Shown here: positions 17,572-38,930 of the stretch, one piece after another
Numbering within the stretch: position 1 is the first letter of the stretch
How the letters are laid out: every line of letters begins with the position of its first letter
Source: a bacterium
GTDB taxonomy: Bacteria; Campylobacterota; Campylobacteria; Campylobacterales; Arcobacteraceae
DNA length: 43,769 nucleotides
Direction: 5' to 3'
Assembly (NCBI GenBank): GCA_018816105.1
Contig: JAHIWE010000033.1
Location: 1 to 43,769 of the forward strand
The notes under the pieces: model-generated
Database searches by the model: none
What the model saw: the letters and a program-made list of their open reading frames with translations, nothing else
What the model was told of the DNA's origin: nothing
Translations under genes and position numbers: made by a program

Positions 17572-17583
17572 AAACTCTTCTTT
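17561..17583 (+). terminator. Hairpin at the end of cysK (attenuator or terminator)
   Basis: AAGAAGAGT (17561-17569) pairs with ACTCTTCTT (17574-17582) across an AAAA loop, followed by a short T-run. It overlaps the cysK stop codon and lies inside an otherwise collinear sulfur gene set, so partial termination is likely. Confidence 0.6.
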
Positions 17584-17619
17584 GTAACTATTTATTATAT
17601 ATAAAATTAGGAAAAATAC

Positions 17620-17850
17620 ATGCACGAAAAACCATATAGGTCAGTGGTAAAATCTATTTCATGGAGAACATTAGGTACTCTTGATACGATGATAATTTCA
17701 TATTTTGTTACAGGTAATTTAGTAATGGCAGCATCAATTGGTTCAATTGAGGTTGTAACAAAAATGGCATTGTATTATTTTCATGAAAGAGCTTGGAATA
17801 GAAGTTCTTTTGGTAGAGTAAAACCTCCTGCAAATGATTATCAAATTTAG
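17620..17850 (+). CDS. DUF2061 small membrane protein
   Basis: The 76-residue protein contains 'RSVVKSISWRTLGTLDTMIISYFVTG' and 'SIGSIEVVTKMALYYFHERAWNR', the two halves of the DUF2061 domain, each with a short hydrophobic segment. The family is membrane-associated, of unknown function, and often encoded beside sulfate assimilation genes, as here between cysK and the APS reductase. A role in sulfate or sulfite handling at the membrane is possible but untested. It ends 8 bases before the next gene. Confidence 0.85.
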   Translation: MHEKPYRSVVKSISWRTLGTLDTMIISYFVTGNLVMAASIGSIEVVTKMALYYFHERAWNRSSFGRVKPPANDYQI

Positions 17851-17858
17851 GTGAAATA

Positions 17859-18563
17859 ATGAGTAAAAAAGAGTTAGTAGAAAAATTAAACAAAGAATTA
17901 GAAAATAAATCAACGCAAGAAGTAGTTGAATTCTTTTTGAAAAACTTTGAAAAAGTAGCATTAAGTTCAAGTTTAGCAGCAGAAGATCAAGTTTTAACAG
18001 ACCTAATGCTAAAGGAAAATAAGAATGCAACAATATTTACATTAGATACAGGCAGACTTCATCCTGAAACTTATGATGTAATGGATGCAACAAATTTGAA
18101 ATATGGTGTAAAAATTGATGTATTTTTCCCAAATAGCGAAAAAGTACAAGAATTATATCAAACGCAAGGTGTAAATGGACAATATGAAAGTATTGAAAAT
18201 AGAAAGAATTGCTGTGGTATTAGAAAAATTGAACCTCTTAAACGTGCTTTAAAAGGTCTTGACGTTTGGATTACAGGGCTAAGAGCTACTCAAAGTGTAA
18301 CAAGAATTGATATGCCTTTAGTTGAATGGGATGAAGCATTTAATGTTATTAAAGTTAATCCTTTGATTAATTGGAATGAAAAAGATGTTTGGGATTACAT
18401 AAAAGAAAATAGAGTTCCATATAATAAACTTCACGATCAAGGTTTCCCTAGTATTGGATGTGCTCCATGTACACGAGCCATTAAAGAAGGTGAAGATATA
18501 AGAGCAGGAAGATGGTGGTGGGAAAACCCAGAACATAAAGAGTGTGGTTTACACAAGAAATAG
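17859..18563 (+). CDS. cysH: Adenylyl-sulfate (APS) reductase, thioredoxin-dependent type
   Basis: The 234-residue protein has the CysH pattern: 'ALSSSLAAEDQVLTDLM', 'FTLDTGRLHPETY', and the catalytic C-terminal 'KECGLH' (Cys229). It also holds both cysteine pairs that bind a [4Fe-4S] cluster, 'NCCGIRK' (Cys118/Cys119) and 'GCAPCTR' (Cys201/Cys204). Presence of the cluster cysteines indicates an enzyme that uses APS rather than PAPS, consistent with no APS kinase (CysC) nearby. It reduces APS to sulfite with thioredoxin. It lies in the sulfur gene set just upstream of cysDN. Confidence 0.93.
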   Translation: MSKKELVEKLNKELENKSTQEVVEFFLKNFEKVALSSSLAAEDQVLTDLMLKENKNATIFTLDTGRLHPETYDVMDATNLKYGVKIDVFFPNSEKVQELYQTQGVNGQYESIENRKNCCGIRKIEPLKRALKGLDVWITGLRATQSVTRIDMPLVEWDEAFNVIKVNPLINWNEKDVWDYIKENRVPYNKLHDQGFPSIGCAPCTRAIKEGEDIRAGRWWWENPEHKECGLHKK

Positions 18564-18637
18564 ATTTTAATTTAAAATATAAAGATGAATTCAAACTTTT
18601 AATTTGAGTGATTCTAAATTAATGGAGAAAAATAAAA

Positions 18638-19549
18638 ATGATAAGTAAAGAAAGATTAACCCATTTAAAACAATTAGAAGCAGAATCAATGCACATAATG
18701 AAAGAAGTAGTAGCAGAATTTCAAAATCCAGCTATGCTTTATTCAGTTGGGAAAGATAGCTCGGTTATGCTTCATATCCTACAAAAAGCATTTTACCCAG
18801 CACCACCACCCTTACCTTTAGTTCATGTTGATACAACATGGAAATTTAAAGAGATGATAGAGTTTAGAGATAGACGTGCAAAAGAAGTTGGTATGGAGCT
18901 TTTAGTTTATATTAATCCTAAAGGTGAAGAGATGGATATCTCTCCTTTTACTCATGGCTCTGCACTACATACCGATGTTATGAAAACTGAAGGTTTAAAA
19001 AATATGTTAAACATTCAAAAGTTTGATGCAGTATTTGGTGGAGCAAGACGTGATGAAGAGAAATCAAGAGCAAAAGAGAGAATCTACTCTTTTAGAGATA
19101 AAAACCATAGATGGGATCCAAAATCACAAAGACCAGAGTTATGGAATATCTATAATGGAAGACACACTAAAGGTGAGTCTATTAGAGTATTCCCATTATC
19201 TAACTGGACAGAGCTTGATATTTGGCAATATATTTATCTTGAAGGTATTCCTATTCCTGATTTATATTTCTCAAAAGAAAGAGATGTTGTAGAATATATG
19301 GGTACAAAAATCATGGTAGATGATGAAAGAATGCCTGAAGAATTAAGAAAAACAGCTAAAAAAGAGATGGTAAGATTTAGAACTTTAGGTTGTTATCCAT
19401 TAACTGGTGCAGTTAATAGTGAAGCTACAACTTTACCAGAGATTATTCAAGAAATGTTAATTTGTACTACAAGTGAAAGACAAGGTAGATTAATAGATAG
19501 TGATGGTGACGCATCAATGGAGAAAAAGAAACAAGAAGGGTATTTTTAA
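18638..19549 (+). CDS. cysD: Sulfate adenylyltransferase subunit 2
   Basis: The 303-residue protein carries the PP-loop '[14 protein letters not shown]' and CysD hallmarks '[17 protein letters not shown]', '[20 protein letters not shown]' and '[15 protein letters not shown]'. The C-terminal '[14 protein letters not shown]' is also typical. With the GTPase subunit CysN it forms ATP sulfurylase, making APS from sulfate and ATP. A 74-base gap before it could hold an internal promoter, though none was clear; ATGGAGAAAA supplies the ribosome site. Only 2 bases separate it from cysN. Confidence 0.95.
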
Positions 19550-19551
19550 AA

Positions 19552-21009
19552 ATGGCACATCAATCAGATTTAATAGCAGAAAATATAGAACAATATTTAA
19601 AAGAACACGAAAATAAAGAGATATGTAGATTTATCACTTGTGGAAGTGTTGATGATGGTAAAAGTACTCTAATTGGAAGACTTTTATATGATTCAAAAAT
19701 GATTTTTGAAGATCAATTAGCAGCAATTGAAAAAGATTCTAAAAAATCAGGAACAACTGGTGATAAAATTGACTTAGCACTTTTAGTTGATGGACTAGCA
19801 AGTGAGAGAGAACAAGGTATTACTATCGATGTTGCTTATAGATTTTTCTCAACTGATAAAAGAAAATTCATAATTGCAGATACTCCAGGTCATGAGCAAT
19901 ATACAAGAAATATGGCAACGGGTGCAAGTACTGCTGATATTGCAATTATTTTAATAGATGCAAGACAAGGGATTTTAACTCAAACTAAAAGACACTCTTA
20001 TATAGCTTCTTTACTAGGTATTAAAAACCTAATCGTTGCTATTAATAAAATGGACTTAGTTGATTTTAGCGAAGAAGTTTTTGAAAATATTAAAAGAGAT
20101 TATAATGAGATTATTGAATATCTTCCTCATAATAAAGATTTAAATATTCAGTTTATTCCTATTTCTGCTTTAGATGGAGATAACATTTTAACTATTTCAC
20201 CTAAGTGTTCTTGGTATAAAGGTCTTCCTTTAATGCAATTATTAGACCGAACAGAAATACATAAACAAGAGTCATCTTCATTTAGATTACCTGTTCAGTA
20301 TGTTGTACGTCCTCATTTAAATTTTAGAGGATTTTCAGGAACAATTTCAAGTGGAAGTGTTAGTGTTGGTGATGAAATTACAGTATTACCTTCAAGAAAA
20401 ACATCTAAAGTAAAATCAATAGTATCAAATGATATTAAAGATTTAAGACCAATTGGAAAAGATGAAACAGTTGAAACTATTCAAACTGCATTTGCTCCAA
20501 TGGCTACAACTATTACACTTGAAGATGAGATTGATATAAGTAGAGGTGATATGATTGTAAAATCAAGTGATATTCCAAAAGTATCAAATCACTTATCAGC
20601 AATGGTAGTTTGGATGGATGAAACTCCACTTAAATTAAATCAAAACTACATTATCAAAAGAGCAACATCTGTAATAAATGGAGCATTTAACACTATTGAG
20701 TTTAAGAAAAACATCAATACTTTTGAAGAAATTGATGCAACACAACTTGCTTTAAATGATATAGCAAAATGTACAATCTCTTTAGATAGAGATATAGCAG
20801 TTGATCCATACCATGAAAATAGATATACAGGAAGTTTTATTATAATTGATAAATATACTAACTCAACAGTTGGGGCTGGTATGATTGTATCTTCTATTGA
20901 AGGTTTCGCTCATTTAGAAGAAGAGAAAAAAGTATATACTCAAAGTGAAATTGAGTTAAATGAATTTATTAGAAGAAATTATCCGCAATGGGATTGTAAG
21001 GCAATATAG
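19552..21009 (+). CDS. cysN: Sulfate adenylyltransferase subunit 1 (GTPase)
   Basis: The 485-residue translation-factor-like GTPase has the G1 loop 'GSVDDGKSTLIGRLLYDS', switch 'REQGITIDVAYRFF', 'DTPGHEQYTRNMA' and 'NKMDLVDF', followed by beta-barrel domains. GTP hydrolysis by CysN drives APS formation by CysD. There is no fused APS kinase domain at the C-terminus (length about 485 versus about 630 for CysNC), matching the APS-type reductase next door. Its stop overlaps the GTG start of the next gene by one base. Confidence 0.95.
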   Translation: MAHQSDLIAENIEQYLKEHENKEICRFITCGSVDDGKSTLIGRLLYDSKMIFEDQLAAIEKDSKKSGTTGDKIDLALLVDGLASEREQGITIDVAYRFFSTDKRKFIIADTPGHEQYTRNMATGASTADIAIILIDARQGILTQTKRHSYIASLLGIKNLIVAINKMDLVDFSEEVFENIKRDYNEIIEYLPHNKDLNIQFIPISALDGDNILTISPKCSWYKGLPLMQLLDRTEIHKQESSSFRLPVQYVVRPHLNFRGFSGTISSGSVSVGDEITVLPSRKTSKVKSIVSNDIKDLRPIGKDETVETIQTAFAPMATTITLEDEIDISRGDMIVKSSDIPKVSNHLSAMVVWMDETPLKLNQNYIIKRATSVINGAFNTIEFKKNINTFEEIDATQLALNDIAKCTISLDRDIAVDPYHENRYTGSFIIIDKYTNSTVGAGMIVSSIEGFAHLEEEKKVYTQSEIELNEFIRRNYPQWDCKAI

Positions 21010-22103
21010 TGTCTAATGATTTAACATTAAATATAGAACAAATAAAAAAAGAAAAAAGTGGAATAGATGTCTTAGGTGACATCTATATCTACTCAATTTT
21101 TCAAGAACGAATAACGCCAAGTGATTTGGAAAGATTCAAATGGTATGGACTTTATGCACAAGATGAAAAACAAGAATTTTTTGAATTAAGAATTCCGCTT
21201 AATATGGGTGAATTAAATCTTGAACAATTAAGAACTATAACGCAAATAACAAAAGATTATACAAATGGCACTTTAAACTTATCAAGTGAGCAAAAAATAG
21301 AGTTAAAAAATCTAAAACTTCACAATATCCCAAATATTTTCAATATGCTTCAAGCTGTTAAATTAAATACTTTTTTTGAAGCAGGTCACACAGTAAGAAG
21401 AGTTCTTACATGCCCAGTAAATGGTATTGATGAAACACAATTATTTGATGTTAGTGATTTAGCAAATAGAATAAATAAAACATTCATTGGAAATAAAGAT
21501 TACTATAACTTACCAAACAAACTTCAAATGGCTATTAGTGGATATGAAGAAGGATGTGATGTTCAGTTTATTCCTGATGTTAGTTTTAATGCAACAAAAG
21601 ATTCAAAAGATAAAATCATTTTTTCACTAAAACTACTTGATAAAACAGTAGGTTATGTAACTTCTCCTCAGGTTCTAAATACAGCAAAAAGTATTGCAAA
21701 TATTTATAAAGATTATGGATATAGAGAGAATTCACAAAAAAGTTCATTTGAATATCTTGTTAATAATTGGGGTTTTGATAAGTTTTACGATATATTAAAT
21801 GCTTCAATCAATTATAAAATAGAAAAAGATATTTCTAAAAAAGATATTTCAACTCCTAGAAAACCTAGAATGGGTATAAACAGCAGTAAAATTCAAGGGG
21901 AAAGTTATATTGGATGTAGATTTAATTCAAATGATATAAGTTATTCAACACTTGATTCTTTATATGAATTATTATTAAAATATAAAGCTTCAAAAATAAA
22001 AATAACCCATAAAGCAAATATTATAATTTTAGATGTTCCTTCAATAAATGCAGAAGAATTTGCAAAAGAGTTGGAAAAAATTGGATTTAATCCTTTTTCA
22101 TAA
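21009..22103 (+). CDS. Half-length nitrite/sulfite reductase-like protein lacking the Fe-S/siroheme motif
   Basis: This 364-residue protein starts with a GTG that overlaps the cysN stop. It resembles siroheme-dependent nitrite/sulfite reductases only in the first three domains: a ferredoxin-like half domain (about 30-105, 'IPLNMGELNLEQLRTITQI'), the 'HTVRRVLTCPVNGIDETQLFDV' domain (about 120-265), and a second ferredoxin-like half (about 280-364). The C-terminal catalytic domain, with paired Cys motifs that bind the [4Fe-4S]-siroheme, is absent, and only three scattered Cys remain. Usual lengths are about 550 or more. It ends in a clean stop and hairpin with no readable remnant behind. It may be a partner subunit, a scaffold, or a decayed enzyme. 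Confidence 0.75.
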   Translation: MSNDLTLNIEQIKKEKSGIDVLGDIYIYSIFQERITPSDLERFKWYGLYAQDEKQEFFELRIPLNMGELNLEQLRTITQITKDYTNGTLNLSSEQKIELKNLKLHNIPNIFNMLQAVKLNTFFEAGHTVRRVLTCPVNGIDETQLFDVSDLANRINKTFIGNKDYYNLPNKLQMAISGYEEGCDVQFIPDVSFNATKDSKDKIIFSLKLLDKTVGYVTSPQVLNTAKSIANIYKDYGYRENSQKSSFEYLVNNWGFDKFYDILNASINYKIEKDISKKDISTPRKPRMGINSSKIQGESYIGCRFNSNDISYSTLDSLYELLLKYKASKIKITHKANIIILDVPSINAEEFAKELEKIGFNPFS

Positions 22104-28123: not shown

Positions 28124-31100
28124 ATGTCTTTGAAAGTTGTAATATCTCACAAAACTCACTATAAATATGATAGAAATATATCTTTATCTCCTCATATTAT
28201 AAGATTAAGACCTGCTCCTCATAGTAGAACCCCTATTGAAGCTTATTCATTAAAAATAAAACCAGATAATCACTTTTTAAACTGGCAACAAGATCCATTT
28301 GGAAACTACATGGCAAGACTTGTATTTCCTGAAAAAACAAAAGAATTTTCAATTGATGTTGAAATTATTGCTGATTTAATTACATTAAATCCATTTGATT
28401 TCTTTGTTGAAGATAGTGCAAAAGATTTTCCTTTTGAATATAAGAAGGAATTAAAAAAAGAGTTAAAACCATATTTAAAAATTGATGAAAAAGGTAAATT
28501 ATTAAAAGACTTCGTAGCTTCTATTGATAAAACACAAAAACCAATCATTGATTTCTTAGTTGAAGTAAATCAAAAAATCAATCAATATGTAAACTACACT
28601 GTACGATTGGAAGCTGGTGTTCAAGAGTGTAAAACTACTTTAGAAAATAAACTAGGTTCATGTAGAGATTCAGCATGGTTATTTGTTCAAGTGTTAAGAC
28701 ATTTAGGACTTGCAGCTCGTTTTGTATCTGGTTACCTAGTTCAATTAACAGCAGATGTTAAATCACTTGATGGACCAAGCGGTCCTGAAGCTGACTTTAC
28801 AGATTTACATGCTTGGACTGAAGTTTATATTCCAGGTGCTGGTTGGGTTGGGCTTGATAGTACAAGTGGCTTATTTGCAGGGGAAGGTCATATTCCACTT
28901 GCTTGTACTCCTCACTATAATAGTGCTCATGCAATTGAAGGATTTAGTGATAAATGTGAAACAGAGTTTTTCTTTGATAATTCTGTAACAAGAATCTTTG
29001 AATCTCCAAGGGTTACAAAACCATATAAAGATGAACAATGGGATGCTATTTATAAACTTGGATTTAAAGTTGATGAAGATTTAGAAAAAAATGATGTTCG
29101 TCTTACAATGGGAGGTGAACCTACTTTTGTATCAATAGATGATATGGAATCACCTCAATGGAATAGTGAAGCTGATGGCCCTCACAAAAGAAAACTTGCA
29201 AATGACTTATCAAGAAAACTATTAGATACTTATGGAAACAATGGTTTACTTCATCATGCTCAAGGAAAATGGTATCCAGGTGAACCACTTCCTAGATGGC
29301 AAACAACAGTGTTTTGGAGAAAAGATGGAAAACCTGTATGGGAAAATCCTGATTTATTAGCCGATATGAATAAGACATATCCATATTCAACTGATGATGC
29401 TAGAAATTTCATATCAACACTATCTTTAATTTTAGGAATAAGTGATGAAAATGTAATTCCTGCTTACGAAGATCCAATTTATTATATTATGAAAGAAGCA
29501 GAACTTCCTTTAGATATTGATCCATTAAAATATGATTTAAAAGATCCTCTTGAAAGAAGAACTATTGCTGAAAAATTAACAAAAGGATTAAATAATCCTG
29601 TTGGATTTGTTCTTCCAGTTAGCTTTGGAGAAACAAAATGGATTACTTCAAAATGGGAATTTAGACGTGGTCACTTATTTTTAGGAGCAGGAAATTCTCC
29701 TTTAGGATTAAGACTTCCACTTGAATCTTTAATTGTTAAACCACAAGTTGAACTTGAACAAGATTTTGAGCAAGATTTATTTGCTTCATATCCAGCTTTA
29801 GGTGAATATATCACAGCTGTTCAAAAAAGAGCTAAAAAAATGAGTAAAAAAACTACTCTAAAAAATAAATATGAAGCTTTTGTAAGAACAGCACTTAGCG
29901 TTGAAATTAGAGATGAAAAACTTTGTATTTTCCTACCTCCAATAAATAAAACAGAAGTTTTCTTAGATTTAATTGCCTCAATTGAAGAAGCAGCAAAAAG
30001 ATTAGAATTAAGTGTAATCATAGAAGGGTATGAACCTCCACATGATTTAAGAACAGATAGAATCAAAGTAACTCCAGATCCAGGTGTTATTGAAGTAAAT
30101 ATTCAACCAGCTAGTTCTTGGAAAGAGTTAAGTGATAACTTACTTTCTTTATATGAAGATGCTAGAGTTTGTAGACTTGGAACTGAGAAATTTATGCTAG
30201 ATGGAAGACACACAGGAACAGGTGGTGGAAATCACGTAACTATTGGAGCTATGGAGCCTAGTGATTCACCATTACTTAGAAATCCTCAATTACTTAGAAG
30301 TCTAATCACATTTTGGCAACACCACCCAGGTTTATCATACCTTTTCTCAGGTGCATTCATAGGACCAACTTCTCAAGCTCCAAGAGTTGATGAAGGAAGA
30401 GCAGAAAATCTATATGAACTTGAAATTGCCTTCTCTCAAATTCCAGAATCTGGAGATGTTCCTTTTTGGTTAACAGATAGATTATTTAGACATATGCTAA
30501 CAGATATCACAGGAAATACCCATAGAAGTGAATTTTGTATAGATAAATTATATTCACCAGATAGTAGTACAGGAAGACTTGGAATCTTAGAGCTTAGAGC
30601 CTTTGATATGCCTCCTCACTCTCAAATGGCACTTTTACAAATGTTATTGGTACGGGCATTAGTATCTTGTTTTTGGGAAAAACCATATAAACATGATTTA
30701 GTTAGATGGGGAACAAGGCTTCATGATAAATTCTTACTTGAGCATTATGTAAAAGAAGATTTAAAAGGTGTAGTTCAATATTTAAATGATGAAGGTTATG
30801 AGTTTAAACTTGATTGGTTTGACCCATTCTTTGAGTTTAGATTCCCATTATATGGAATGACAATGATTGAAGGAATGCCTGTTGAAATCAGATCAGCAAT
30901 TGAGCCTTGGCATGTTCTAGGAGAAGAATCAAGTTCTCAAGGAACTGCTAGATATGTTGATTCATCAGTTGAAAGATTACAAATAAAAATTGAAAACTTC
31001 AATGAAGAAAGATATATCATTACTTGTAATGGTGTTCAAGTTCCATTATCTAGAACAGATGTTGAAGGTGAGTATGTAAGTGGTGTTAGATATAAAGCTT

Positions 31101-31489
31101 GGCAACCATGGTCAGCACTACACCCTACAATTAAAGTAGATACACCTCTAACTTTTGATATAATCGACAAATGGAATACAAGGTCAATTGGAGGGTTCAA
31201 TTATTTTGTTGCACATCCAGGTGGAAGAAGTTATGATAGTTTCCCTGTAAACTCTTATGAAGCAGAATCTAGAAGAATAAATAGATACTGGGACTTCAAC
31301 CATTCACAAGGTGTTGTAACAGAATATGAACCACAAATTGGTGGAGAAAGTAATACTCTTTTTGCAGTTGAGGCTACAAGAACTTTAACTAATAAAAAAG
31401 GAAGTAAAAAACTATTCTTCCACGAAATGCCTAAAAATAAAGAGTATCCTCATACTCTAGACTTAAGACAAAGGTGGATTAGAAAATAG
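28124..31489 (+). CDS. Transglutaminase-DUF2126 fusion (transglutaminase plus amidoligase-like domain)
   Basis: The 1121-residue protein has three parts. An N-terminal transglutaminase-associated beta domain (about 1-110) and a transglutaminase-like core (about 140-300) come first, with catalytic triad candidates Cys180 ('LGSCRDSAWL'), His229 ('DLHAWTEVY') and Asp245 ('GLDSTSG'). A large DUF2126 region (about 325-1121) follows. DUF2126 has been proposed to be a GCS2-like COOH-NH2 ligase; the motif 'LDGRHTGTGGGNH' (about 692-704) is the kind of conserved loop expected for that fold. There is no signal peptide. It starts an operon whose next gene follows with no gap. Likely role: forming or breaking amide bonds on a peptide. 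Product and substrate are unknown. Confidence 0.88.
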   Translation: MSLKVVISHKTHYKYDRNISLSPHIIRLRPAPHSRTPIEAYSLKIKPDNHFLNWQQDPFGNYMARLVFPEKTKEFSIDVEIIADLITLNPFDFFVEDSAKDFPFEYKKELKKELKPYLKIDEKGKLLKDFVASIDKTQKPIIDFLVEVNQKINQYVNYTVRLEAGVQECKTTLENKLGSCRDSAWLFVQVLRHLGLAARFVSGYLVQLTADVKSLDGPSGPEADFTDLHAWTEVYIPGAGWVGLDSTSGLFAGEGHIPLACTPHYNSAHAIEGFSDKCETEFFFDNSVTRIFESPRVTKPYKDEQWDAIYKLGFKVDEDLEKNDVRLTMGGEPTFVSIDDMESPQWNSEADGPHKRKLANDLSRKLLDTYGNNGLLHHAQGKWYPGEPLPRWQTTVFWRKDGKPVWENPDLLADMNKTYPYSTDDARNFISTLSLILGISDENVIPAYEDPIYYIMKEAELPLDIDPLKYDLKDPLERRTIAEKLTKGLNNPVGFVLPVSFGETKWITSKWEFRRGHLFLGAGNSPLGLRLPLESLIVKPQVELEQDFEQDLFASYPALGEYITAVQKRAKKMSKKTTLKNKYEAFVRTALSVEIRDEKLCIFLPPINKTEVFLDLIASIEEAAKRLELSVIIEGYEPPHDLRTDRIKVTPDPGVIEVNIQPASSWKELSDNLLSLYEDARVCRLGTEKFMLDGRHTGTGGGNHVTIGAMEPSDSPLLRNPQLLRSLITFWQHHPGLSYLFSGAFIGPTSQAPRVDEGRAENLYELEIAFSQIPESGDVPFWLTDRLFRHMLTDITGNTHRSEFCIDKLYSPDSSTGRLGILELRAFDMPPHSQMALLQMLLVRALVSCFWEKPYKHDLVRWGTRLHDKFLLEHYVKEDLKGVVQYLNDEGYEFKLDWFDPFFEFRFPLYGMTMIEGMPVEIRSAIEPWHVLGEESSSQGTARYVDSSVERLQIKIENFNEERYIITCNGVQVPLSRTDVEGEYVSGVRYKAWQPWSALHPTIKVDTPLTFDIIDKWNTRSIGGFNYFVAHPGGRSYDSFPVNSYEAESRRINRYWDFNHSQGVVTEYEPQIGGESNTLFAVEATRTLTNKKGSKKLFFHEMPKNKEYPHTLDLRQRWIRK

Positions 31490-33979
31490 ATGTCAATTTT
31501 TGATAGTTGTAGGTTAGAATCATCATTTGATGAAATGTTTGATAAAGATTGTAATGTAAAAGAACAATGGAAAGAAATATTTAATAATCTTGAAAAAACA
31601 GATATAAAACAACTTGAGCAAAAACAAACAGAAATTGATTGGCGTTTAGAAGATAATGGGGTTACTTATAATATTTATAATGATCCTGAAGGAACAAATA
31701 GAAGATGGAATCTAGATCCGATTCCATTTGTTCTAACTAGTGAAGAATGGGAAGAAATTACAAAGGGATTAAAACAAAGAGCAAAGTTATTAAATCTTAT
31801 TTTTAAAGATTTATATACAGAACAACGTTTAATAAAAGAAGGTATTGTTCCTGCTGAAATTATATTTGCTCACAAAAGTTTTATACCTGAAGTATTTAAT
31901 TTTGAAAATCCAGATTATTATACTATGAGATATTATGCTGCTGATATAAGCAGAGGTCCAAATGGAAAATTTTGGGTTATAAATGATAGAACACAATCAC
32001 CATCAGGTCTTGGTTATGCAATAGAGAATAGACTTACTATGAACTCTGTGTTAAATGATTTATATCCAAATATTGAAATCCAAAAAATTGCTAAGTTTAT
32101 AGAAGGTTTTAAGAATATGCTTAAAAAAATAGCTTCTAAAACAAATGATCATCCCTTAGTAACACTCTTAAGTCCTGGTCCTCATAATGAAACATATTTC
32201 GAACATTCGTACCTTAGTTCATTTTTAGATTTAACACTTGTTCAAGGTGAAGATTTACTTACAAAAAATAATCAACTTTGGCTAAAAAGCCTAAGTGGTC
32301 TTAAAAAAGTTGATGCAATAATAAGAAGAGTTGACTCAAAATTTTGTGATCCACTGGAATTAAGAAATGACTCACGACTTGGAGTTGCTGGACTTTTAAA
32401 TGTTGTAAGAGAAGATAATGTTTGTATGATAAATCCAATTGGAGTGGGAATTTTAGAAAATATTGGACTTAATCCTTTTATGAAAAATATCGCTAAGTTT
32501 TTACTTGATGAAGAGTTAATTCTTCCTCAAATAGCAACTTGGTGGTGTGGACAAAAAAAAGAGTTAGATTTTGTAATTAAAAATATAAGAACCCTTTTAA
32601 TAAAAAAAATTGATAAAACTGATGATATAGAGGTTTACTTTGGTAATCAACTAAATGATGAAGAAATCATAAAACTAACTGAAAAAATCAGTAAAAGCCC
32701 ACACTATTATGTGGGTCAAGAAATCATTGACTTCTCAACAATTCCTTCTTTTCATAAGGGAAAAGTAGAACCAAGAAATGCAGTTATTAGAGCATTTGGC
32801 TATTTAGAGGAAGAAAACTTTGAAATTATGCCAAGTGGTCTTGTAAGAGTTTCTGCTTCAAAAGATTCATTAGTAGTTTCAAATCAAAAAGGTGGAACAA
32901 GTAAAGATTTATGGATTTTAGGAAAAAGTGAAGATACATCAAATATTAATATATTCAAATCTAGAGAATTTATTGATACAAGATTAGAAAATATTTCAAC
33001 TAAAAGAGCTGAAAATCTTTTCTGGCTTGGAAGATATCTTAATCGTGCAATTACAATGGCTAGAATGATTCGATTTAATTTAAAAAGTATGCTAAATATT
33101 AATAGATATGAAGATAATACAAATGCAAAACAAGCAACAAAAATATTAAATATTTCATTAACCCATCTATCTATGACTTATCCTGGATTCTTAGAAGAAA
33201 AAGAGATAAAACCTATAGTTGAAATTATTGATTTAATTCAAAATAACAATAGATGTGGAACATTATCTTTTACACTTTCAATGCTTTCTAATATAAATGC
33301 AAATGTTAAAAATCTTCTTACAATGGAAGCTTGGAGAATCTTTGAGAGAATGCAAAAAGAGTGGTTTACATACAATAAAAGACAAATAGTTTCAAATAGA
33401 GATCATATAAATGAACTTGATAAAATTCTTATTTATCTAATGGCATATAAAGAGTTAATCGATGAAAGTATCTTTAAAGAACAAGGTTTGATTTTATATG
33501 ATATTGGTTGTAAAATAGAGGTTTCTCAACTTTTAATCTCTAAACTTCGTTCACTTCTTACAAAAAAACATGATATGTTATTGGAGTATGATATTTTAGA
33601 TTCAATGCTAAACTCTTATGAGAGTTATAACTCATATAGAGCTTATTATCAATCAACACTTGAACTTGAAAATGTTCTTGAATTTTTATTGTTTAATACA
33701 AAATATCCAAAATCTTTGATTTATATACTTGAAGATTTATCATCAAATCTTAAAGATTTACCAAGAGATGGAAAAAACTATCATTTGAGTTCTTTTGAAG
33801 AGCCTATATTTAAATCATATTCAATGTTAAGAGTTTCATCTACTAAAAAACTTTTAGAAATAGAAGAGGATGAAGTTATTTATAAAAATCTTGATAAGTT
33901 TTTATCTGAAATTTCAGACAATTTAGCTCTTACATCAGAAGAGTTAACAAAAACATATTTTTCACACTATAACGAGTAA
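31490..33979 (+). CDS. Circularly permuted ATP-grasp fused to alpha-E domain
   Basis: The 829-residue protein joins two domains that are separate genes in the neighbouring minus-strand operon. Residues about 10-495 form a circularly permuted ATP-grasp (DUF404/DUF407) with segments 'DPIPFVLTSEEWEEITKGLK', 'VINDRTQSPSGLGYAIENR', 'LLSPGPHNETYFEHSYLSSF' and 'DAIIRRVDSKFCDPLELR'. Residues about 500-829 form an alpha-E (DUF403) domain opening 'STKRAENLFWLGRYLNRAIT'. ATP-grasp enzymes ligate a carboxylate to an amine via an acylphosphate. The alpha-E domain always accompanies this ATP-grasp type and has no known activity. It abuts the genes on both sides (0 and 2 bases), so the operon is tight. Confidence 0.9.
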   Translation: MSIFDSCRLESSFDEMFDKDCNVKEQWKEIFNNLEKTDIKQLEQKQTEIDWRLEDNGVTYNIYNDPEGTNRRWNLDPIPFVLTSEEWEEITKGLKQRAKLLNLIFKDLYTEQRLIKEGIVPAEIIFAHKSFIPEVFNFENPDYYTMRYYAADISRGPNGKFWVINDRTQSPSGLGYAIENRLTMNSVLNDLYPNIEIQKIAKFIEGFKNMLKKIASKTNDHPLVTLLSPGPHNETYFEHSYLSSFLDLTLVQGEDLLTKNNQLWLKSLSGLKKVDAIIRRVDSKFCDPLELRNDSRLGVAGLLNVVREDNVCMINPIGVGILENIGLNPFMKNIAKFLLDEELILPQIATWWCGQKKELDFVIKNIRTLLIKKIDKTDDIEVYFGNQLNDEEIIKLTEKISKSPHYYVGQEIIDFSTIPSFHKGKVEPRNAVIRAFGYLEEENFEIMPSGLVRVSASKDSLVVSNQKGGTSKDLWILGKSEDTSNINIFKSREFIDTRLENISTKRAENLFWLGRYLNRAITMARMIRFNLKSMLNINRYEDNTNAKQATKILNISLTHLSMTYPGFLEEKEIKPIVEIIDLIQNNNRCGTLSFTLSMLSNINANVKNLLTMEAWRIFERMQKEWFTYNKRQIVSNRDHINELDKILIYLMAYKELIDESIFKEQGLILYDIGCKIEVSQLLISKLRSLLTKKHDMLLEYDILDSMLNSYESYNSYRAYYQSTLELENVLEFLLFNTKYPKSLIYILEDLSSNLKDLPRDGKNYHLSSFEEPIFKSYSMLRVSSTKKLLEIEEDEVIYKNLDKFLSEISDNLALTSEELTKTYFSHYNE

Positions 33980-33981
33980 TT

Positions 33982-34875
33982 ATGATATATGAAATTTACC
34001 ATGAAACAAAATTTAATTATGCAGCTATTGTCACATTTAGTCATAATATTGCAAGATTAAAACCAAAAAATAGCTCAACACAAAAACTATTAGAGCATTC
34101 ACTAAAAATAAGTCCAAATCCTTATGAAACAAGTGAATTTGTAGATTATTTTGAAAATACAAATAATTTTATGTTAATAAGAGAAGCCCATAAAAGTTTG
34201 ACGGTTACTGCTATTTCAAGAGTTGAAAGAATTGAAGAAGAAATAAATAAAAATATTCAAGAGCTAAAAAACTGCAAAATAACATTTAAAGAAGCAAGGG
34301 AAAGATTAACTAAATTTAATAGTGAAGATGTTTTATCTAAGCAATATCTTTTTGAAACAGACTCTATTCCAATTGCAAATGAAAATATAAAAACATATAT
34401 TCTTGAGTCATTTAGTGAAGATAGAAACCTATTTGAATCTATTAATGAATTTATGCAAAGAATATTTACAGACTTCAAGTTTGTATCGGGCTTTAGTAAT
34501 GTAACGACTCCAATTGATGAGATATTTGAAGCTAAAAAAGGTGTTTGTCAAGATTTTGCTCAATTTGCAATTGGGGCTTTAAAAAGTATAGGACTTCCTG
34601 CTAGATATGTAAGTGGATATATTCAAACAAATCCACCTGAAGGTCAAGAAAAACTTTTTGGAGCAGATGCTTCACATGCATGGTTTTCTGTTTATATTCC
34701 TAGTTTTGGATGGGCTGATTTCGATCCAACAAACAATAAAATACCAAATGAAGAGTATATAGTGTTAGGTTATGGAAGAGATTATTTAGATATCGCTCCA
34801 CTTAAAGGTGTAGTTCAAAGTAGTGGGAATAGTATCTTAGGTGTAAAAGTGAATGTTCAAAGAATGAATAGTTAA
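33982..34875 (+). CDS. Transglutaminase-like cysteine peptidase family protein
   Basis: The 297-residue protein has the N-terminal beta domain ('YEIYHETKFNYAAIVTFSHN', about 1-75) and a transglutaminase core with Cys189 ('KKGVCQDFAQFAI'), His232 ('DASHAWFSVY') and Asp248 ('ADFDPTNNKI'). It ends with 'VLGYGRDYLDIAPLKGVVQ', the family signature. Family members hydrolyse or transfer amide bonds. It has no signal peptide and is the last gene of the plus operon. Its stop lies 1 base from the convergent M14-like gene. It is presumably the processing partner of the ATP-grasp, since this gene trio is common in bacteria. Confidence 0.92.
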   Translation: MIYEIYHETKFNYAAIVTFSHNIARLKPKNSSTQKLLEHSLKISPNPYETSEFVDYFENTNNFMLIREAHKSLTVTAISRVERIEEEINKNIQELKNCKITFKEARERLTKFNSEDVLSKQYLFETDSIPIANENIKTYILESFSEDRNLFESINEFMQRIFTDFKFVSGFSNVTTPIDEIFEAKKGVCQDFAQFAIGALKSIGLPARYVSGYIQTNPPEGQEKLFGADASHAWFSVYIPSFGWADFDPTNNKIPNEEYIVLGYGRDYLDIAPLKGVVQSSGNSILGVKVNVQRMNS

Positions 34876-34876
34876 A

Positions 34877-35809
34877 CTATCCAATCTTTGCAATTCTAAA
34901 TGCAACTGCATTTTCATAAATTAAAGAAGTACTATAAAAACATGTAATCATTCCATCACATGGAGCTAAAAAGGTATGAATTACATTTCCTTCTAAAGAG
35001 TGTACAATTTCTCCAATAACTTGGTCTTTTGATACATATCTTCCAGCTGATTCAATTTGAATAAAGATTCCACTTTTAGGTGCTTTAATTACTTCTATTG
35101 ATTCTCTATTTATAACAGTTGATTCATAACCATTAAAAATATGATGTTCAATAACTTTGTTTTTATCCATAAATCTAAGCATTCCTTGATTTATCTGACT
35201 TGCAGTTTTTTTATCAATTTGATTTTCATGTGGACACATAATTGAATATGCCTTAGTTCCCCATAATTGCCAATTATATTGTAAAGTTACAGTATCTATT
35301 GATTTTACAGTTCTGTGATGAATCATTTTAAAACCAAACTTTTTTGCTGCTTTTAAATCTTCATATCCACTTTTAAAAAGTTTTACATAAGGAATACAAG
35401 TAGCAGGATCAGGACGCCTTTCTAATATTATTCCATAAGTGTATCCATTAATTGCATCAAAAACTTTTTTTGCTATTCTTTGAGTTGTTTCACCCAATTC
35501 ATAACCTGGAAACATCATATTTAAATCTGTATTATCCAAAGGCCAAAATCTTTTTCCAATATTTAGTGCATAATGATTAATTGAAGGAATAATTAAAACA
35601 TTACCTTTAATCTTTTTTTCTTCAATCTTATTTTTAAAAAAATCCACTAATGATGAAGCACAATATAAAGGTAATATTGAATCACCCTCCATAGCTCCAA
35701 TAATAGCAATACTAGGTGCTGTTGCATCACTGCCTTCAAATAAATAACCCTCTACAACAAAAGGTGCTCTACTTAAAGATTCAATTCTTAAAATCTCAAT
35801 TTTTTTCAC
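34877..35809 (-). CDS. M14 aspartoacylase/succinylglutamate-desuccinylase-like protein, zinc ligands lost
   Basis: The best start is GTG 35807-35809, because GGAG lies 6 bases before it; a TTG at 35821 is less supported. The 310-residue product aligns along its length with the upstream neighbour and with AstE/AspA family proteins. The zinc motif HxxE is replaced (Glu41-Gly-Asp-Ser44 in 'GAMEGDSIL'), the Arg after 'DLN' is Met ('TDLNMMFPG'), the third ligand His is lost ('ILERRPD' in place of 'DIHSS'), and the catalytic Glu is absent. It looks like a pseudoenzyme. Its start overlaps the end of the intact homologue, so the two are probably made together and may pair. Confidence 0.8.
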   Translation of the reverse strand: MKKIEILRIESLSRAPFVVEGYLFEGSDATAPSIAIIGAMEGDSILPLYCASSLVDFFKNKIEEKKIKGNVLIIPSINHYALNIGKRFWPLDNTDLNMMFPGYELGETTQRIAKKVFDAINGYTYGIILERRPDPATCIPYVKLFKSGYEDLKAAKKFGFKMIHHRTVKSIDTVTLQYNWQLWGTKAYSIMCPHENQIDKKTASQINQGMLRFMDKNKVIEHHIFNGYESTVINRESIEVIKAPKSGIFIQIESAGRYVSKDQVIGEIVHSLEGNVIHTFLAPCDGMITCFYSTSLIYENAVAFRIAKIG

Positions 35810-36749
35810 TGTTTTCTCCAAAAATTCTAGCGATTAACGAGCCTTCATAAACAACAGGATATTCTCTTAATGTAAACAATATACCCTCAGCAGGTGATTT
35901 TAATTCACAATAAATAGTTCCAGTTAAAGGATCAACAATATCACCAATTTTTTGATCTTTTTGAATTATGGCACAATGATCTAAAGAAGGAACAAACAGA
36001 CCACTTTTTGGTGCATTTAAATAAAATACTTCTCCAACTTCAGAACTAAAAGCTTCTCTTGTGATAAAATCATCTTTACACTCAATAATGGCTTCTTTTT
36101 TCATTAGATTTAAAATACCTAATAATAATTGATGTCCATACTCTTTTGTAAGCCTCATACCAACGCCCATTTCAACAACAAGTGTTTTAGTACCCATAGA
36201 GTTTAATGTATGTGAAAAAGTTGATTCAAGAACCGTTACAGCATCATGTATCCATATAAAATCACAATTTAATTGCTTAGCTAGTGGTAAGGTTGATTTT
36301 GAGAACTCTTTATTTATTCTAATTTGTGGAATTTCTCTTAAAAAGATATTACTTGAGTGAATATCAATAGCAACATCACTACCTTTTATATCTTGTGAAA
36401 GTGCATATACTACTTGACCTGGTAAAAATTCATTTGGGCTACCAGGAAAAGTTCTATTTAAATCAACTTCATATAAAGGAAATCCTCTAGTAATTGTATC
36501 AACTCCCAAAGAGTTAACTGAAGGATAAATATCCACTATTCCTATGATTTTTTCACTATTTTTATTTAACCAATCAGCTAATAGATATATAACTAATTGA
36601 CCTTCTAATTCATCTCCATGTATTCCACTCACAATAGATATTCTTTTTAGTTTTTTAGCCCTTTTACTTGCAGGTTCGAATCTTGTTCTTCTAATAGAAA
36701 GTTTTTCACCAACGGGAAGATCTGAACTAAAAATTTCACTTGTTTTCAT
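35796..36749 (-). CDS. M14 aspartoacylase/succinylglutamate-desuccinylase-like zinc enzyme
   Basis: The 317-residue protein keeps all expected residues of this family: zinc ligands His44 and Glu47 in 'SGIHGDELEG', 'VDLNRTFPG' (Asn98-Arg99, substrate carboxylate binding), the third ligand His131 in 'AIDIHSS', and a catalytic Glu193 in 'VVEMGVG'. The C-terminal ~75 residues form a beta domain ('GLFVPSLDHCAIIQKDQKIGDIVD'). Members cleave acyl-amino acids such as N-succinylglutamate or N-acetylaspartate, or C-terminal residues of peptides. In this operon it may trim or deacylate the product of the ATP-grasp. It overlaps the next gene. Confidence 0.87.
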   Translation of the reverse strand: MKTSEIFSSDLPVGEKLSIRRTRFEPASKRAKKLKRISIVSGIHGDELEGQLVIYLLADWLNKNSEKIIGIVDIYPSVNSLGVDTITRGFPLYEVDLNRTFPGSPNEFLPGQVVYALSQDIKGSDVAIDIHSSNIFLREIPQIRINKEFSKSTLPLAKQLNCDFIWIHDAVTVLESTFSHTLNSMGTKTLVVEMGVGMRLTKEYGHQLLLGILNLMKKEAIIECKDDFITREAFSSEVGEVFYLNAPKSGLFVPSLDHCAIIQKDQKIGDIVDPLTGTIYCELKSPAEGILFTLREYPVVYEGSLIARIFGENSEKN

Positions 36750-36753
36750 TTAT

Positions 36754-37413
36754 TTACTCAACTATAATTTTATTAATCTTAGCATTTATAGAATTTAGTA
36801 TAACCTCATATGAATCTTTTTCATCATGTGGTTTAAATACTGCATCTGGTGCTAAAATTTTTACAATTTTATCTATTTCCTCCATAACAACCAATGAAAA
36901 CATTTTATTTCTTTCTAATCTTAAATGAAAATCAACTTTTTCAACAAGTTTTCCAAGTCTAATAAAATAATCACTTGTATCTCTTTTTTGTCTTCTTGTT
37001 AATTTCCCCCAAATAGCACTTATTAAAGATAAAACTTCATCTAAAAAGCTACAATCAACTTGTGGTAGATGACTTCCTCTTTTTATTAGTTCAGATAACT
37101 CAATAACAGAACCAAAAGCTTCTGTATACATATCAGCTCTACTTATAATGGCATTTTCCCTTGCACATTCCATTAAATTATTTATATTAGAATCATGATT
37201 CCCAAAAATAGCTATATTTAAGAAATCTTTTGTATCTTTATACTCAATATCCATCTCTAACTTTTTAAAAAGTTTTACTCCAGCTTGTTTATCAGTATCA
37301 ATTACCTTATCTGATGCTGTGATAATTTCTAGTAATGTCGCTTCAATTCTTTCTAAATATCTACCAAACCAATATAAATTTGTTGCAACATTTGCAGTTA
37401 TTAATTGTTCCAT
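36754..37413 (-). CDS. Alpha-E (DUF403) domain protein
   Basis: The start is the ATG 37411-37413, preceded by GGAGG at 7 bases; a longer upstream reading would overlap the ATP-grasp gene. The 219-residue product is nearly all helical and opens with the alpha-E signature 'VATNLYWFGRYLERIEATLLEI', matching the C-terminal half of the fused protein at 31490-33979. Conserved Glu/Arg residues suggest a catalytic or binding helical bundle, but no activity is known. It is separated by 1 base from the ATP-grasp gene, so the split pair is made together as the fused version would be. Confidence 0.87.
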   Translation of the reverse strand: MEQLITANVATNLYWFGRYLERIEATLLEIITASDKVIDTDKQAGVKLFKKLEMDIEYKDTKDFLNIAIFGNHDSNINNLMECARENAIISRADMYTEAFGSVIELSELIKRGSHLPQVDCSFLDEVLSLISAIWGKLTRRQKRDTSDYFIRLGKLVEKVDFHLRLERNKMFSLVVMEEIDKIVKILAPDAVFKPHDEKDSYEVILNSINAKINKIIVE

Positions 37414-37414
37414 A

Positions 37415-38779
37415 TTAAGCCTCCATAACCCAAGTATCTTTAAACCCACCACCTTGAGATGAATTAACTAAATAATTCCCTACTTCCATGGCATATCTTG
37501 TTAATCCACACTTCCAAACTTTTGGTTCTTCTGCCATAACAACATAAGCTCTAAAGTCTGCTTTTCTTGGTACTATTTCATTATTTAAATAACATTTCTC
37601 ATCGTAAAATTCAACTAACTCTTGAGCAATGAATCTTCTTGGATCAGATTCGATTATTTTCTTTAAATCTTCTAATTGAATTTTTGTCATTGCATGTCCA
37701 AACATTACTCCATAACCACCAGCTTCTGCAACATCTTTGATAACAAGTTTATGCATATTTTCAAACACATATTTCTTATCATCTTCAAAATATGGTAAAT
37801 ATGTTGGTGCATTTTTTAAAATTGGCTCTTCACCTAAATAGTATTTAATCATTTTTGGAACAAAATAGTAAATACCTTTATCATCAGCAACACCATTTCC
37901 AGGTGCATTTAAAAGTGCAACATTTCCAGATAAATAAGCTTCCATGATTCCTGGAACTCCTATTAAACTCTCAGGATTAAAGAATTTTGGATCTAAGAAC
38001 TCATCATCTAATCTTCTATAAATAGAACCAACTCTGATATCTTTTCCATTATAGTTTTTAAAATAAACCACTTTATCTTTAACTACTAATTCACTATTTC
38101 TAACAAGCTGAGCACCAATTTTTTTTGCTAAATATGCATGTTCATAATAAGCTGAATTAAATCTACCTGGAGTTAAAACAACATTTATTCCTCCACAATT
38201 TACATAATCCATTGATTCTCTTAATATTAAAGGATATTCTTTTATTGGTTTAATATTTAAAGATTCGAAGAATTCTGGATATATTTTTCTATAAGTATCC
38301 CTAATTGATAATGGATAACTAGCACCACTTGGAACTCTTAAATTATCTTCTAAAATAATCCAATCATCTGTTATAGTATCTTTTACTAAATCAATTCCAT
38401 TAATATGCGTTCTGATTTTTTTTGAAGGAGAGAACCCATGAAGCTCTTTTAAATAACCTTTTGCTTGGTAAATAAATTCTTCAGGAATAATATTATCTTT
38501 AATAATATTTTTTGTAGTGTATAAATCTTCTAGAAAAAGATTAAGTGCTTTTATTCTTTGACTAAGACCTTTATCTAAATTATCAAACTCTTTTGAATCT
38601 ATAATTCTTGGAATTACATCAAAAGGAAGAGATCTTTCTATAAAATTTCCATCTTTATAAAGATTGAAATTAACCGCAAACTTGTCCATATACTTTTGGA
38701 ACTCATCAATCTTTTGTCTATCTTGTTTTGAAAAGATTTCCCAAAAGATTTTATTCACATCATTCTTATCATTTATCAA
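37415..38779 (-). CDS. Circularly permuted ATP-grasp ligase (DUF404/DUF407)
   Basis: The best start is TTG 38777-38779, which has AGGGGG 7 bases upstream; an ATG nine codons earlier has no ribosome site. The 454-residue product matches the ATP-grasp part of the fused protein: 'LPFDVIPRIIDSKEFDNLDK', 'ILEDNLRVPSGASYPLS', 'VVLTPGRFNSAYYEHAYLAK', 'SIYRRLDDEFLDPKFFN' and 'FIAQELVEF'. It should activate a carboxylate with ATP for ligation to an amine. It heads the minus-strand operon with alpha-E and two M14-like genes. A short GTATATA-type palindrome (38859-38875) lies upstream. Confidence 0.9.
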   Translation of the reverse strand: MINDKNDVNKIFWEIFSKQDRQKIDEFQKYMDKFAVNFNLYKDGNFIERSLPFDVIPRIIDSKEFDNLDKGLSQRIKALNLFLEDLYTTKNIIKDNIIPEEFIYQAKGYLKELHGFSPSKKIRTHINGIDLVKDTITDDWIILEDNLRVPSGASYPLSIRDTYRKIYPEFFESLNIKPIKEYPLILRESMDYVNCGGINVVLTPGRFNSAYYEHAYLAKKIGAQLVRNSELVVKDKVVYFKNYNGKDIRVGSIYRRLDDEFLDPKFFNPESLIGVPGIMEAYLSGNVALLNAPGNGVADDKGIYYFVPKMIKYYLGEEPILKNAPTYLPYFEDDKKYVFENMHKLVIKDVAEAGGYGVMFGHAMTKIQLEDLKKIIESDPRRFIAQELVEFYDEKCYLNNEIVPRKADFRAYVVMAEEPKVWKCGLTRYAMEVGNYLVNSSQGGGFKDTWVMEA

Positions 38780-38930
38780 TTTACACCCCCTAAACTGATA
38801 AATCATAGTCTTTTTATTCTAAATAATAAATAAATAATTCTTATGATTTCTTGTTTAAGTATATAAAATATATACACTTTACAATAATTTATGCATTTAT
38901 CTACAGAAAATAGCCTTTTTTTATATTTAC

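What the first reader, a model, noticed from the sequence alone, without database searches (positions are those of the whole stretch)
28124..38779. Two convergent operons for a peptide-ligation/cleavage pathway of unknown product
Seen: seven genes (transglutaminase-DUF2126, ATP-grasp/alpha-E fusion, transglutaminase; and convergently ATP-grasp, alpha-E, two M14-like proteins) with near-zero spacing within each operon. Known: circularly permuted ATP-grasp, alpha-E, transglutaminase and DUF2126 co-occur widely and were predicted by comparative genomics to form amide-bond-making systems. Inference: one ATP-grasp set builds, and the transglutaminases and M14 proteins trim or transfer, a small peptide or protein tag. 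I know of no product described for this group of bacteria.
Basis: partly seen in the sequence, partly recalled or inferred. Interest (0 to 1): 0.85.

Follow-up and report, generated by a model that had tools for sequence, protein, structure and literature searches.

The report
Amide-bond cassette with two pseudoenzymes
A bacterium of the Arcobacter group carries seven neighbouring genes that look like one predicted pathway for making and breaking amide bonds; it is a variant in which a zinc-enzyme pair, one apparently active and one apparently dead, stands where relatives carry a proteasome-like protease, and its product is still unknown.

Summary
In detail: two compact convergent operons, A (TG-DUF2126, ATP-grasp/alpha-E, TG) and B (ATP-grasp, alpha-E, two AstE/M14-like proteins), stops one base apart. 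In 397 Campylobacterota genomes A is nearly always with B (45 of 46), but B occurs without A (6 of 51), and outside the phylum B is a widespread five-gene cassette (ATP-grasp, alpha-E, TG, AstE1, AstE2) in genomes without DUF2126 (0 of 34, 0 of 19). Found here: (1) the second AstE is a conserved pseudoenzyme (catalytic Glu absent in 124 of 124 copies, zinc His pair in 123); (2) the ATP-grasp of A lacks two metal-ligand-like residues (49 of 49) and the glycine loop, which B's keeps; (3) among AstE-type cassettes the B-operon TG keeps its Cys where A is absent and is deleted or Cys-to-Ser/Arg where A is present, with one unclear MAG. Point 3 rests on 2-3 independent contrasts and was not seen in Gammaproteobacteria. 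No Anbu-size protease was found in 15 Campylobacterota genomes. This is a new variant of the predicted CP ATP-grasp/alpha-E system. Nitrogen limitation induces homologues elsewhere; a sulfur link was set aside. The product is unknown.

The parts
28124..31489 (+). A1: transglutaminase-like N-terminal region and core fused to DUF2126 (predicted GS-like amidoligase), 1121 aa
   Evidence: Pfam DUF2126 1282.8 bits, Transglut_core 64 bits; TG Cys180-His229-Asp245 kept in 38 of 38 full-length A1; weak GS-fold resemblance of the DUF2126 model
31490..33979 (+). A2: circularly permuted ATP-grasp fused to alpha-E, 829 aa; ATP-grasp part looks degenerate
   Evidence: CP_ATPgrasp_2 447 bits, Alpha-E 172 bits; residues aligned to B1 E153 and N155 changed in 49 of 49 A2; none of 49 keeps all three loop glycines, one keeps two
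33982..34875 (+). A3: stand-alone transglutaminase-like protein, 297 aa
   Evidence: Bact_transglu_N + Transglut_core; Cys189-His232-Asp248 kept in 58 of 58 A3
34877..35821 (-). B4: pseudo-AstE (AstE/AspA fold, zinc His pair and catalytic Glu lost), 314 aa
   Evidence: PF24827 35 bits; zinc His pair lost in 123 of 124 and catalytic Glu in 124 of 124 copies; AF2 model pLDDT 85, best PDB matches 3cdx and DoeB 6twm, CphZ 8ein also high
35796..36749 (-). B3: AstE/AspA-like zinc amidase, 317 aa, all catalytic residues present
   Evidence: PF24827 63 bits; H44, E47, N98, H131, E193 kept in 130 of 130 copies; best solved match by sequence 3cdx
36754..37413 (-). B2: stand-alone alpha-E protein (start codon taken as the ATG at 37413; listed ORF begins GTG 37452)
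   Evidence: Alpha-E 65 bits; start; no convincing solved relative by sequence
37415..38806 (-). B1: circularly permuted ATP-grasp, 463 aa, catalytic motifs intact
   Evidence: CP_ATPgrasp_2 443 bits; 3n6x E 8e-112; E153-D154-N155 kept in 101 of 101 B1, three loop glycines in 100 of 101

Best explanation
The seven genes are two modules of one ATP-dependent amide-bond system. Module B is the core: the intact ATP-grasp B1, helped by alpha-E (B2), joins a carboxylate to an amine; B3, a zinc amidase of the AstE/AspA kind, opens such a bond, with the dead paralogue B4 as a binding or regulatory partner. In AstE-type lineages without module A a transglutaminase-like Cys-His-Asp enzyme sits in the same operon. 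Module A brings its own transglutaminases (A1 N-terminus, A3), a GS-like ligase domain (DUF2126) and a probably non-catalytic ATP-grasp/alpha-E scaffold (A2), and in Campylobacterota it has replaced the B-operon transglutaminase. Shown: gene content, residues kept or lost, distribution, and the replacement pattern. Inferred: the reactions, the direction of each step, a glutamyl or aspartyl (side-chain or N-acyl) amide as the bond, and a role in nitrogen economy, which rests on homologues in other bacteria.
For: Co-occurrence of A with B: 45 of 46 A2-bearing genomes of 397, Fisher p 1.5e-51 before any correction for relatedness. B3 is found only with B1 (44 of 44); B3 and B4 are paired in 50 of 50 fetched phylum loci with B3. 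The five-gene cassette occurs in Clostridia, Methanomethylophilaceae archaea, a Bacteroidales, a Spirochaetales and others. B1, B3 and the A transglutaminases conserve catalytic residues while A2 and B4 have lost theirs. TG lost or Cys-to-Ser/Arg with A, intact without A, in AstE-type cassettes; parallel Cys-to-Ser in a Burkholderia cenocepacia with A. 45 or 46 of the 50 listed fold matches of the DUF2126 model are glutamine-synthetase-like, though none reaches E 0.001. The ATP-grasp of a Yersinia Anbu operon releases phosphate from ATP (PMC6376114, passages). Nitrogen induction of homologues: P. putida PP_2685/PP_2688 (PMC8050072, passages), B. cenocepacia I35_5080-83 under NtrC (PMC5491218, passages).
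Against: No product, substrate or interaction is known; Yersinia operon proteins did not specifically pull each other down (PMC6376114). The TG replacement has only 2 independent well-supported contrasts (3 on all branches), sign test p 0.5; it was not seen among Gammaproteobacteria, where most DUF2126-free genomes also show no neighbouring TG, and Shinella has A with an intact B-type TG. One TG-less AstE MAG (G466) showed no DUF2126. Seven genomes with A and B lack the AstE pair altogether. B4 still has a Glu at the second zinc position in 52 of 124 copies. No strong sigma-54 site stands before A1 or B1 in Campylobacterota. The DUF2126 model is poor (pLDDT 59).
Confidence: 0.5

Rival explanations
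1. A scavenging route: the ligase step merely activates an amine or peptide (as in gamma-glutamylation of amines), and the transglutaminases and AstE1 release usable amino acids; nothing is built to be kept.
For: Nitrogen-limitation induction of homologues; relatives of the AstE pair by sequence or fold include DoeB and the cyanophycin dipeptide hydrolase CphZ; the GS-like fold matches of DUF2126 include gamma-glutamyl-methylamide synthetase and YbdK.
Against: No oxidising enzyme or transporter stood out as a constant neighbour when the loci were read by eye; neighbours were not annotated systematically and part's output was cut.
Confidence: 0.25
2. Protein tagging: B1/DUF2126 attach a small peptide to proteins and TG/AstE1 remove it, as predicted for the Anbu-type operon.
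For: Association of the same gene set with the proteasome-like Anbu in other bacteria (Klebsiella plasmid; PMC5666114 and PMC6376114 passages).
Against: Here no Anbu-size protease was found in 15 Campylobacterota genomes; no tag-like gene of 60 aa or more stood out beside the operons, but shorter frames were not looked for.
Confidence: 0.15
3. Two unrelated pathways that travel together; neighbourhood reflects shared acquisition only.
For: B is common without A; G342 carries A and B about 1.1 Mb apart on one contig.
Against: A is almost never without B in the phylum; the B-operon TG state tracks A in AstE cassettes; both are fused into one operon in Enterobacter, and B1-alpha-E-A1 runs occur in other Gammaproteobacteria such as L284 and L329.
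Confidence: 0.15
4. A thiol or sulfur-amino-acid peptide (glutathione-like), because B1's nearest solved relative is called a glutathionylspermidine synthase and sulfate genes lie nearby.
For: CysA/W/T, sulfate-binding protein, CymR-like Rrf2, CysK, SsuD or CysD beside A or B in several genomes; sulfite-reductase, CysN-like and CysK-like genes 6-11 kb before A in the window.
Against: Of 31 same-genus genomes, 23 have a close CysT (87% or more), 13 of these without A and B, while four with A and B, the window's own among them, have none; the cases lie mostly in one clade; the PDB name is itself a guess.
Confidence: 0.07

Closest known systems
Predicted CP ATP-grasp / GS-like DUF2126 / alpha-E / transglutaminase system (Iyer et al. 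2009; paper not held, content recalled)
   Same: Same ligase, alpha-E, TG and DUF2126 families in operons
   Different: NTN-hydrolase Anbu not found; AstE1 plus a dead AstE2 in its place
Anbu operon (ATP-grasp, alpha-E, TG, Anbu) of Klebsiella, Yersinia, Pseudomonas
   Same: First two genes, and the third in non-Campylobacterota cassettes, in the same order as in the Klebsiella plasmid
   Different: Fourth position holds AstE1-AstE2 instead of a proteasome-like protease; Campylobacterota with module A have no TG or a dead one in B
AstE/AspA family: DoeB, CphZ, aspartoacylase
   Same: Fold and catalytic residues in B3 (by sequence); fold in the B4 model
   Different: Low sequence identity; B4 lacks the catalytic residues; ligase genes stand beside them
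3n6x, putative glutathionylspermidine synthase
   Same: Near full-length match to B1, same catalytic motifs
   Different: A name given by depositors; no functional test was seen here; B1 has no amidase domain

Membership tests
Predicted CP ATP-grasp/alpha-E/TG/DUF2126 system | Circularly permuted ATP-grasp with alpha-E | tested here: met
Predicted CP ATP-grasp/alpha-E/TG/DUF2126 system | DUF2126 with transglutaminase domain | tested here: met
   Pfam
Predicted CP ATP-grasp/alpha-E/TG/DUF2126 system | DUF2126 is a GS-like fold | tested here: inconclusive
   Model pLDDT 59; matches almost all GS-like but none below E 0.001
Predicted CP ATP-grasp/alpha-E/TG/DUF2126 system | Ligase activity on a peptide or protein | not testable with these tools
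   No assay
Anbu operon | Proteasome-like Anbu gene in or near the operon | tested here: not met
   PF00227: 13 of 15 Campylobacterota genomes have one match each, open frames 177-200 aa (HslV-size, not further identified); own genome and G344 none. Five cassette genomes outside the phylum were also searched: three without a match, one (G441) with a 187-aa frame, one archaeon with two
AstE/AspA zinc amidase (B3) | HxxE...H zinc site and catalytic Glu | tested here: met
   130 of 130 copies, some contigs counted twice
AstE/AspA zinc amidase (B4) | HxxE...H zinc site and catalytic Glu | tested here: not met
   Zinc His pair absent in 123 of 124, catalytic Glu in 124 of 124; the one with a zinc site is Oryzomonas L222
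Active CP ATP-grasp (A2) | Metal-ligand-like residues and glycine loop as in 3n6x and B1 | tested here: not met
   E153/N155 equivalents changed in 49 of 49; at most two of three loop glycines, in one copy. That E153 and N155 are metal ligands is recalled from glutathionylspermidine synthetase
Active CP ATP-grasp (B1) | Metal-ligand-like residues and glycine loop as in 3n6x | tested here: met
   57 of 57 phylum and 44 of 44 outside copies for the residues; loop 100 of 101

The most novel reading that the evidence does not exclude
The AstE-type cassette (ATP-grasp, alpha-E, TG, AstE1, dead AstE2) is a separate, unnamed, widespread amide-cycling system of Clostridia, archaea, Campylobacterota and others, which makes and opens a glutamyl or aspartyl isopeptide tied to nitrogen economy; module A is an add-on whose transglutaminases take over from the cassette's own, and the two dead paralogues (A2, B4) are structural subunits of active pairs.
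Probability: 0.28. Interest if true: 0.85.

Novelty: new variant of a known kind. Interest (0 to 1): 0.55.

Why it matters
The CP ATP-grasp/alpha-E/DUF2126 set is widespread and I saw no described product; the word DUF2126 is in no paper of the open-access library searched. The AstE-type variant gives a route in: characterised AstE/AspA enzymes have small defined amide substrates, so B3 can be assayed, and its substrate would name the bond that B1 makes. The dead partner, the degenerate second ATP-grasp and the swap of transglutaminase between modules each make a gene-removal test direct. Database names call some B4 proteins M14 family metallopeptidases, which the residues contradict.

Tried and rejected
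Sulfur link: looked strong from neighbours, but a close CysT is in 13 same-genus genomes without A and B and is missing from four with them; set aside, not disproved. Sigma-54 control in Campylobacterota: best score 5 of 11 before A1 (20 loci), 7 of 11 before B1 (56 loci), 7 of 11 in 205 control genes; scores of 6-7 are commoner before B1 (5 of 56) than in controls (3 of 205), a weak excess that was not followed up. A general rule that DUF2126 replaces the B-operon transglutaminase: failed outside AstE-type cassettes. Of 91 Gammaproteobacteria with B1 that were tested, 55 have DUF2126. A separate TG with a visible Cys motif right after B1/alpha-E was seen in 2 with DUF2126 (G694, G530) and 4 without (G686, G723, G765, G767); G659, without DUF2126, has a TG match whose Cys motif was not seen; several loci are cut by contig ends. 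Twenty DUF2126-free genomes read upstream showed Anbu in 8 and no TG. Three A2-bearing Gammaproteobacteria have no DUF2126 (G501, G572, G760). DUF2126 fold: model too weak for a claim by itself. No viral-contig scan, no viral-library fold search and no complex prediction was made.

Dropped or doubled rows: G338 (66-residue partial match) and G734 (50-residue partial) were not counted as B1; alignment A3 held L048 twice; copies include some contigs fetched twice; A in the phylum was scored by A2, not A1; part of the printed output was cut, so the TG state of all 57 phylum loci with B1 was recounted; structures of A2 and B3 were not predicted.
Full report
OBSERVATION. Operon A reads 28124-34875 on +, operon B 38806-34877 on -, converging with their stops one base apart. 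Junctions inside A are 0 and 2 bases; inside B the genes abut or overlap. The window is contig C18 of a 2.78 Mb draft genome in which a search with B1 finds just these two circularly permuted (CP) ATP-grasps. Named close relatives of A1 are Arcobacter.

WHAT THE PROTEINS ARE. Pfam: A1 Bact_transglu_N, Transglut_core and DUF2126; A2 CP_ATPgrasp and Alpha-E; A3 TG; B1 CP_ATPgrasp; B2 Alpha-E; B3 and B4 AstE_AspA_cat. No NCBIfam cut-off is reached; the AstE proteins touch DoeB far below its cut-off. B1's only solved relative by sequence (E up to 0.001) is 3n6x, a putative glutathionylspermidine synthase. DUF2126 and B2 have no convincing solved relative by sequence.

DISTRIBUTION. In 60 genomes (own included), 17 have a match to B1, each with exactly one B1-like and one A2-like gene. 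In 397 Campylobacterota genomes (completeness 90% or more asked for), B1 is in 51, A2 in 46, both in 45; B1 alone in 6 (G107, G187, G223, G268, G302, G309), A2 alone in 1 fragmented genome (G320) (recount; Fisher p 1.5e-51, relatedness ignored). B3 (56% identity or more) is in 44, all with B1; in the loci fetched, 50 of 50 with B3 have B4. Seven genomes have A and a short B of ATP-grasp and alpha-E only. So A2, B1 and B3 occur together in 38 genomes. Of 52 genomes with A and B, own included, 43 have them in one stretch of at most 20 kb; some of the rest are split by contig ends, but G342 has them far apart on one contig.

THE B CASSETTE ELSEWHERE. A profile of B3 gave 555 relatives in genome contigs, of which 80 loci were returned. 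Of the 53 loci outside Campylobacterota, 41 show ATP-grasp, alpha-E, TG, AstE1, AstE2 in this order on one strand, among them Clostridia, Methanomethylophilaceae, a Bacteroidales, a Spirochaetales and Duodenibacillus. The other 12 are cut by contig ends (such as L176, L192, L201), rearranged (L209, L210), read differently by the script (L214, L222, L223) or have no ATP-grasp in view (L175, L204). A TG is found in 50 of the 53. Several Sulfurospirillum-type genomes and G107 also have the TG in this place. DUF2126 is absent from 36 of 36 genomes (34 non-Campylobacterota by locus title; L169 and L170 are Campylobacterota) and from 19 of 19 non-Campylobacterota genomes. A gammaproteobacterium (G686, L314) has ATP-grasp, alpha-E, TG and both AstE genes without DUF2126. 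Completeness of these drafts was not given.

PSEUDOENZYMES. B3 keeps His44, Glu47, Asn98, His131 and Glu193 in 130 of 130 copies and Arg99 in 129. B4 lacks both zinc His residues in 123 of 124 and the catalytic Glu in 124 of 124; it has a Glu at the second zinc position in 52 and Asn98 in 106, and is otherwise well conserved. The one copy with a zinc site, in Oryzomonas L222, still lacks the catalytic Glu, and L314's second AstE keeps HxxE-like and NR motifs, so the loss looks secondary. An AlphaFold2 model of B4 (pLDDT 85) has the AstE fold, best matches 3cdx and DoeB, with the cyanophycin dipeptide hydrolase CphZ close behind, TM about 0.7. For the ATP-grasps, B1 keeps E153-D154-N155 in 101 of 101 copies and three loop glycines in 100; A2 has changed E153 and N155 in 49 of 49, and none keeps all three glycines (one, L122, keeps two), while D154, K357 and Q395 are kept. 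That E153 and N155 are metal ligands is recalled from glutathionylspermidine synthetase. The TG triads of A1 (38 of 38) and A3 (58 of 58) are intact.

TRANSGLUTAMINASE SWAP. Of 57 fetched phylum loci with B1, 13 have a TG inside the B cassette: seven from genomes with A, with Cys to Ser (L043, L134, L135, L138, L142, L144) or Arg (L136), and six from the genomes without A, with the Cys (L120, L137, L139, L140, L141, L143). A second set: of 16 Campylobacterota genomes with TG-less B, 14 have DUF2126; G469 has A2 and A3 in its locus; G466, a MAG, shows no A. On a B1 tree of 82 rows both traits change three times; only 2 independent contrasts lie on well-supported branches (3 on all), all in the expected direction, sign test p 0.5: suggestive, not proven. 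Named plasmid records: Enterobacter, Caballeronia, Acidithiobacillus, Halomonas and Azospirillum have DUF2126 and no separate B-type TG in the stretch read; Burkholderia cenocepacia has one with Cys to Ser; Shinella has one intact, an exception. Gammaproteobacteria do not show the pattern (see Tried and rejected), so it should not be generalised.

NO ANBU SEEN. PF00227 finds one HslV-size match in 13 of 15 Campylobacterota genomes and none in the window's genome or G344. A Klebsiella plasmid shows the classic order ATP-grasp, alpha-E, TG, proteasome-type protease. The AstE pair thus stands where Anbu stands; equivalence of function is inference.

DUF2126. The model is weak (pLDDT 59), but 45 or 46 of the 50 listed Foldseek matches are glutamine-synthetase-like enzymes, best E 0.0056, low TM. 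This agrees with, and does not prove, the prediction of Iyer et al. 2009 (recalled; the paper is not held).

PHYSIOLOGY. Passages read: in P. putida PP_2685 (proteasome beta subunit) and PP_2688 (CP ATP-grasp) rise by log2 4.44 and 3.99 on nitrate against ammonium, and the PP_2688 promoter responds to nitrogen depletion 3.7-fold (PMC8050072); in B. cenocepacia I35_5080-83 are listed at -6.0 to -9.4 in an ntrC mutant (PMC5491218); a CP_ATPgrasp gene is listed with an RpoN-type site in Bradyrhizobium (PMC13207237); Anbu is said to be high under nitrogen starvation, and its operon's ATP-grasp released phosphate from ATP while no specific complex was found (PMC6376114). None of this is from Campylobacterota, where no strong sigma-54 site was found.

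NOVELTY. Searches for DUF2126, DUF403/404/407, alpha-E, CP ATP-grasp, Anbu and succinylglutamate desuccinylase listed no paper that I recognised as describing an AstE-type cassette (open-access library only, some lists capped). The 2009 prediction paper could not be read, so it may mention it. I file the finding as a new variant of a known, predicted kind.

Noticed in passing
window 16639-22103: PALP (CysK-like), EF-Tu-type GTPase (CysN-like) and nitrite/sulfite reductase genes lie 6-11 kb before operon A; sulfate ABC genes lie between A and B in several relatives (L034, L037, L039, L040, L041).
   Followed up: partly
L108, L109, L111, L112 (about 10.7-11.9 kb): A further alpha-E-like reading frame (273-288 aa) precedes B1 in genus code g67.
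   Followed up: no
L042:15631-16482 and L117:12163-12999: An additional gene resembling the transglutaminase part of A1 lies upstream of A1.
   Followed up: no
L049:6353-7579: In G036 a gene of the cystathionine gamma-synthase / O-acetylhomoserine sulfhydrylase kind sits between A1 and A2.
   Followed up: partly
P0077: A Francisella philomiragia DUF2126 protein is 80% identical to A1, suggesting transfer of module A between phyla.
   Followed up: no
L250:8845-18042: An Enterobacter plasmid carries B1, B2 and A1-A3 as one five-gene run; arsC and IS elements lie upstream.
   Followed up: partly
G000:C4:67859-68671: A separate AstE-like paralogue in a frame of about 350 aa exists in the own genome; similar ones exist in genomes without B.
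   Followed up: no
L175 (Aquificota), L204: AstE1-like genes without an ATP-grasp in view; what they do alone is unclear.
   Followed up: no
L252:11496-12557, L255:5285-6366: A 'putative zinc-binding metallopeptidase' lies by the ATP-grasp/alpha-E pair in Caballeronia and Hymenobacter, possibly a third kind of hydrolase partner.
   Followed up: no
L314 (G686): A gammaproteobacterium with the five-gene AstE cassette has a second AstE that keeps HxxE-like and NR motifs, perhaps an ancestral state of B4.
   Followed up: partly
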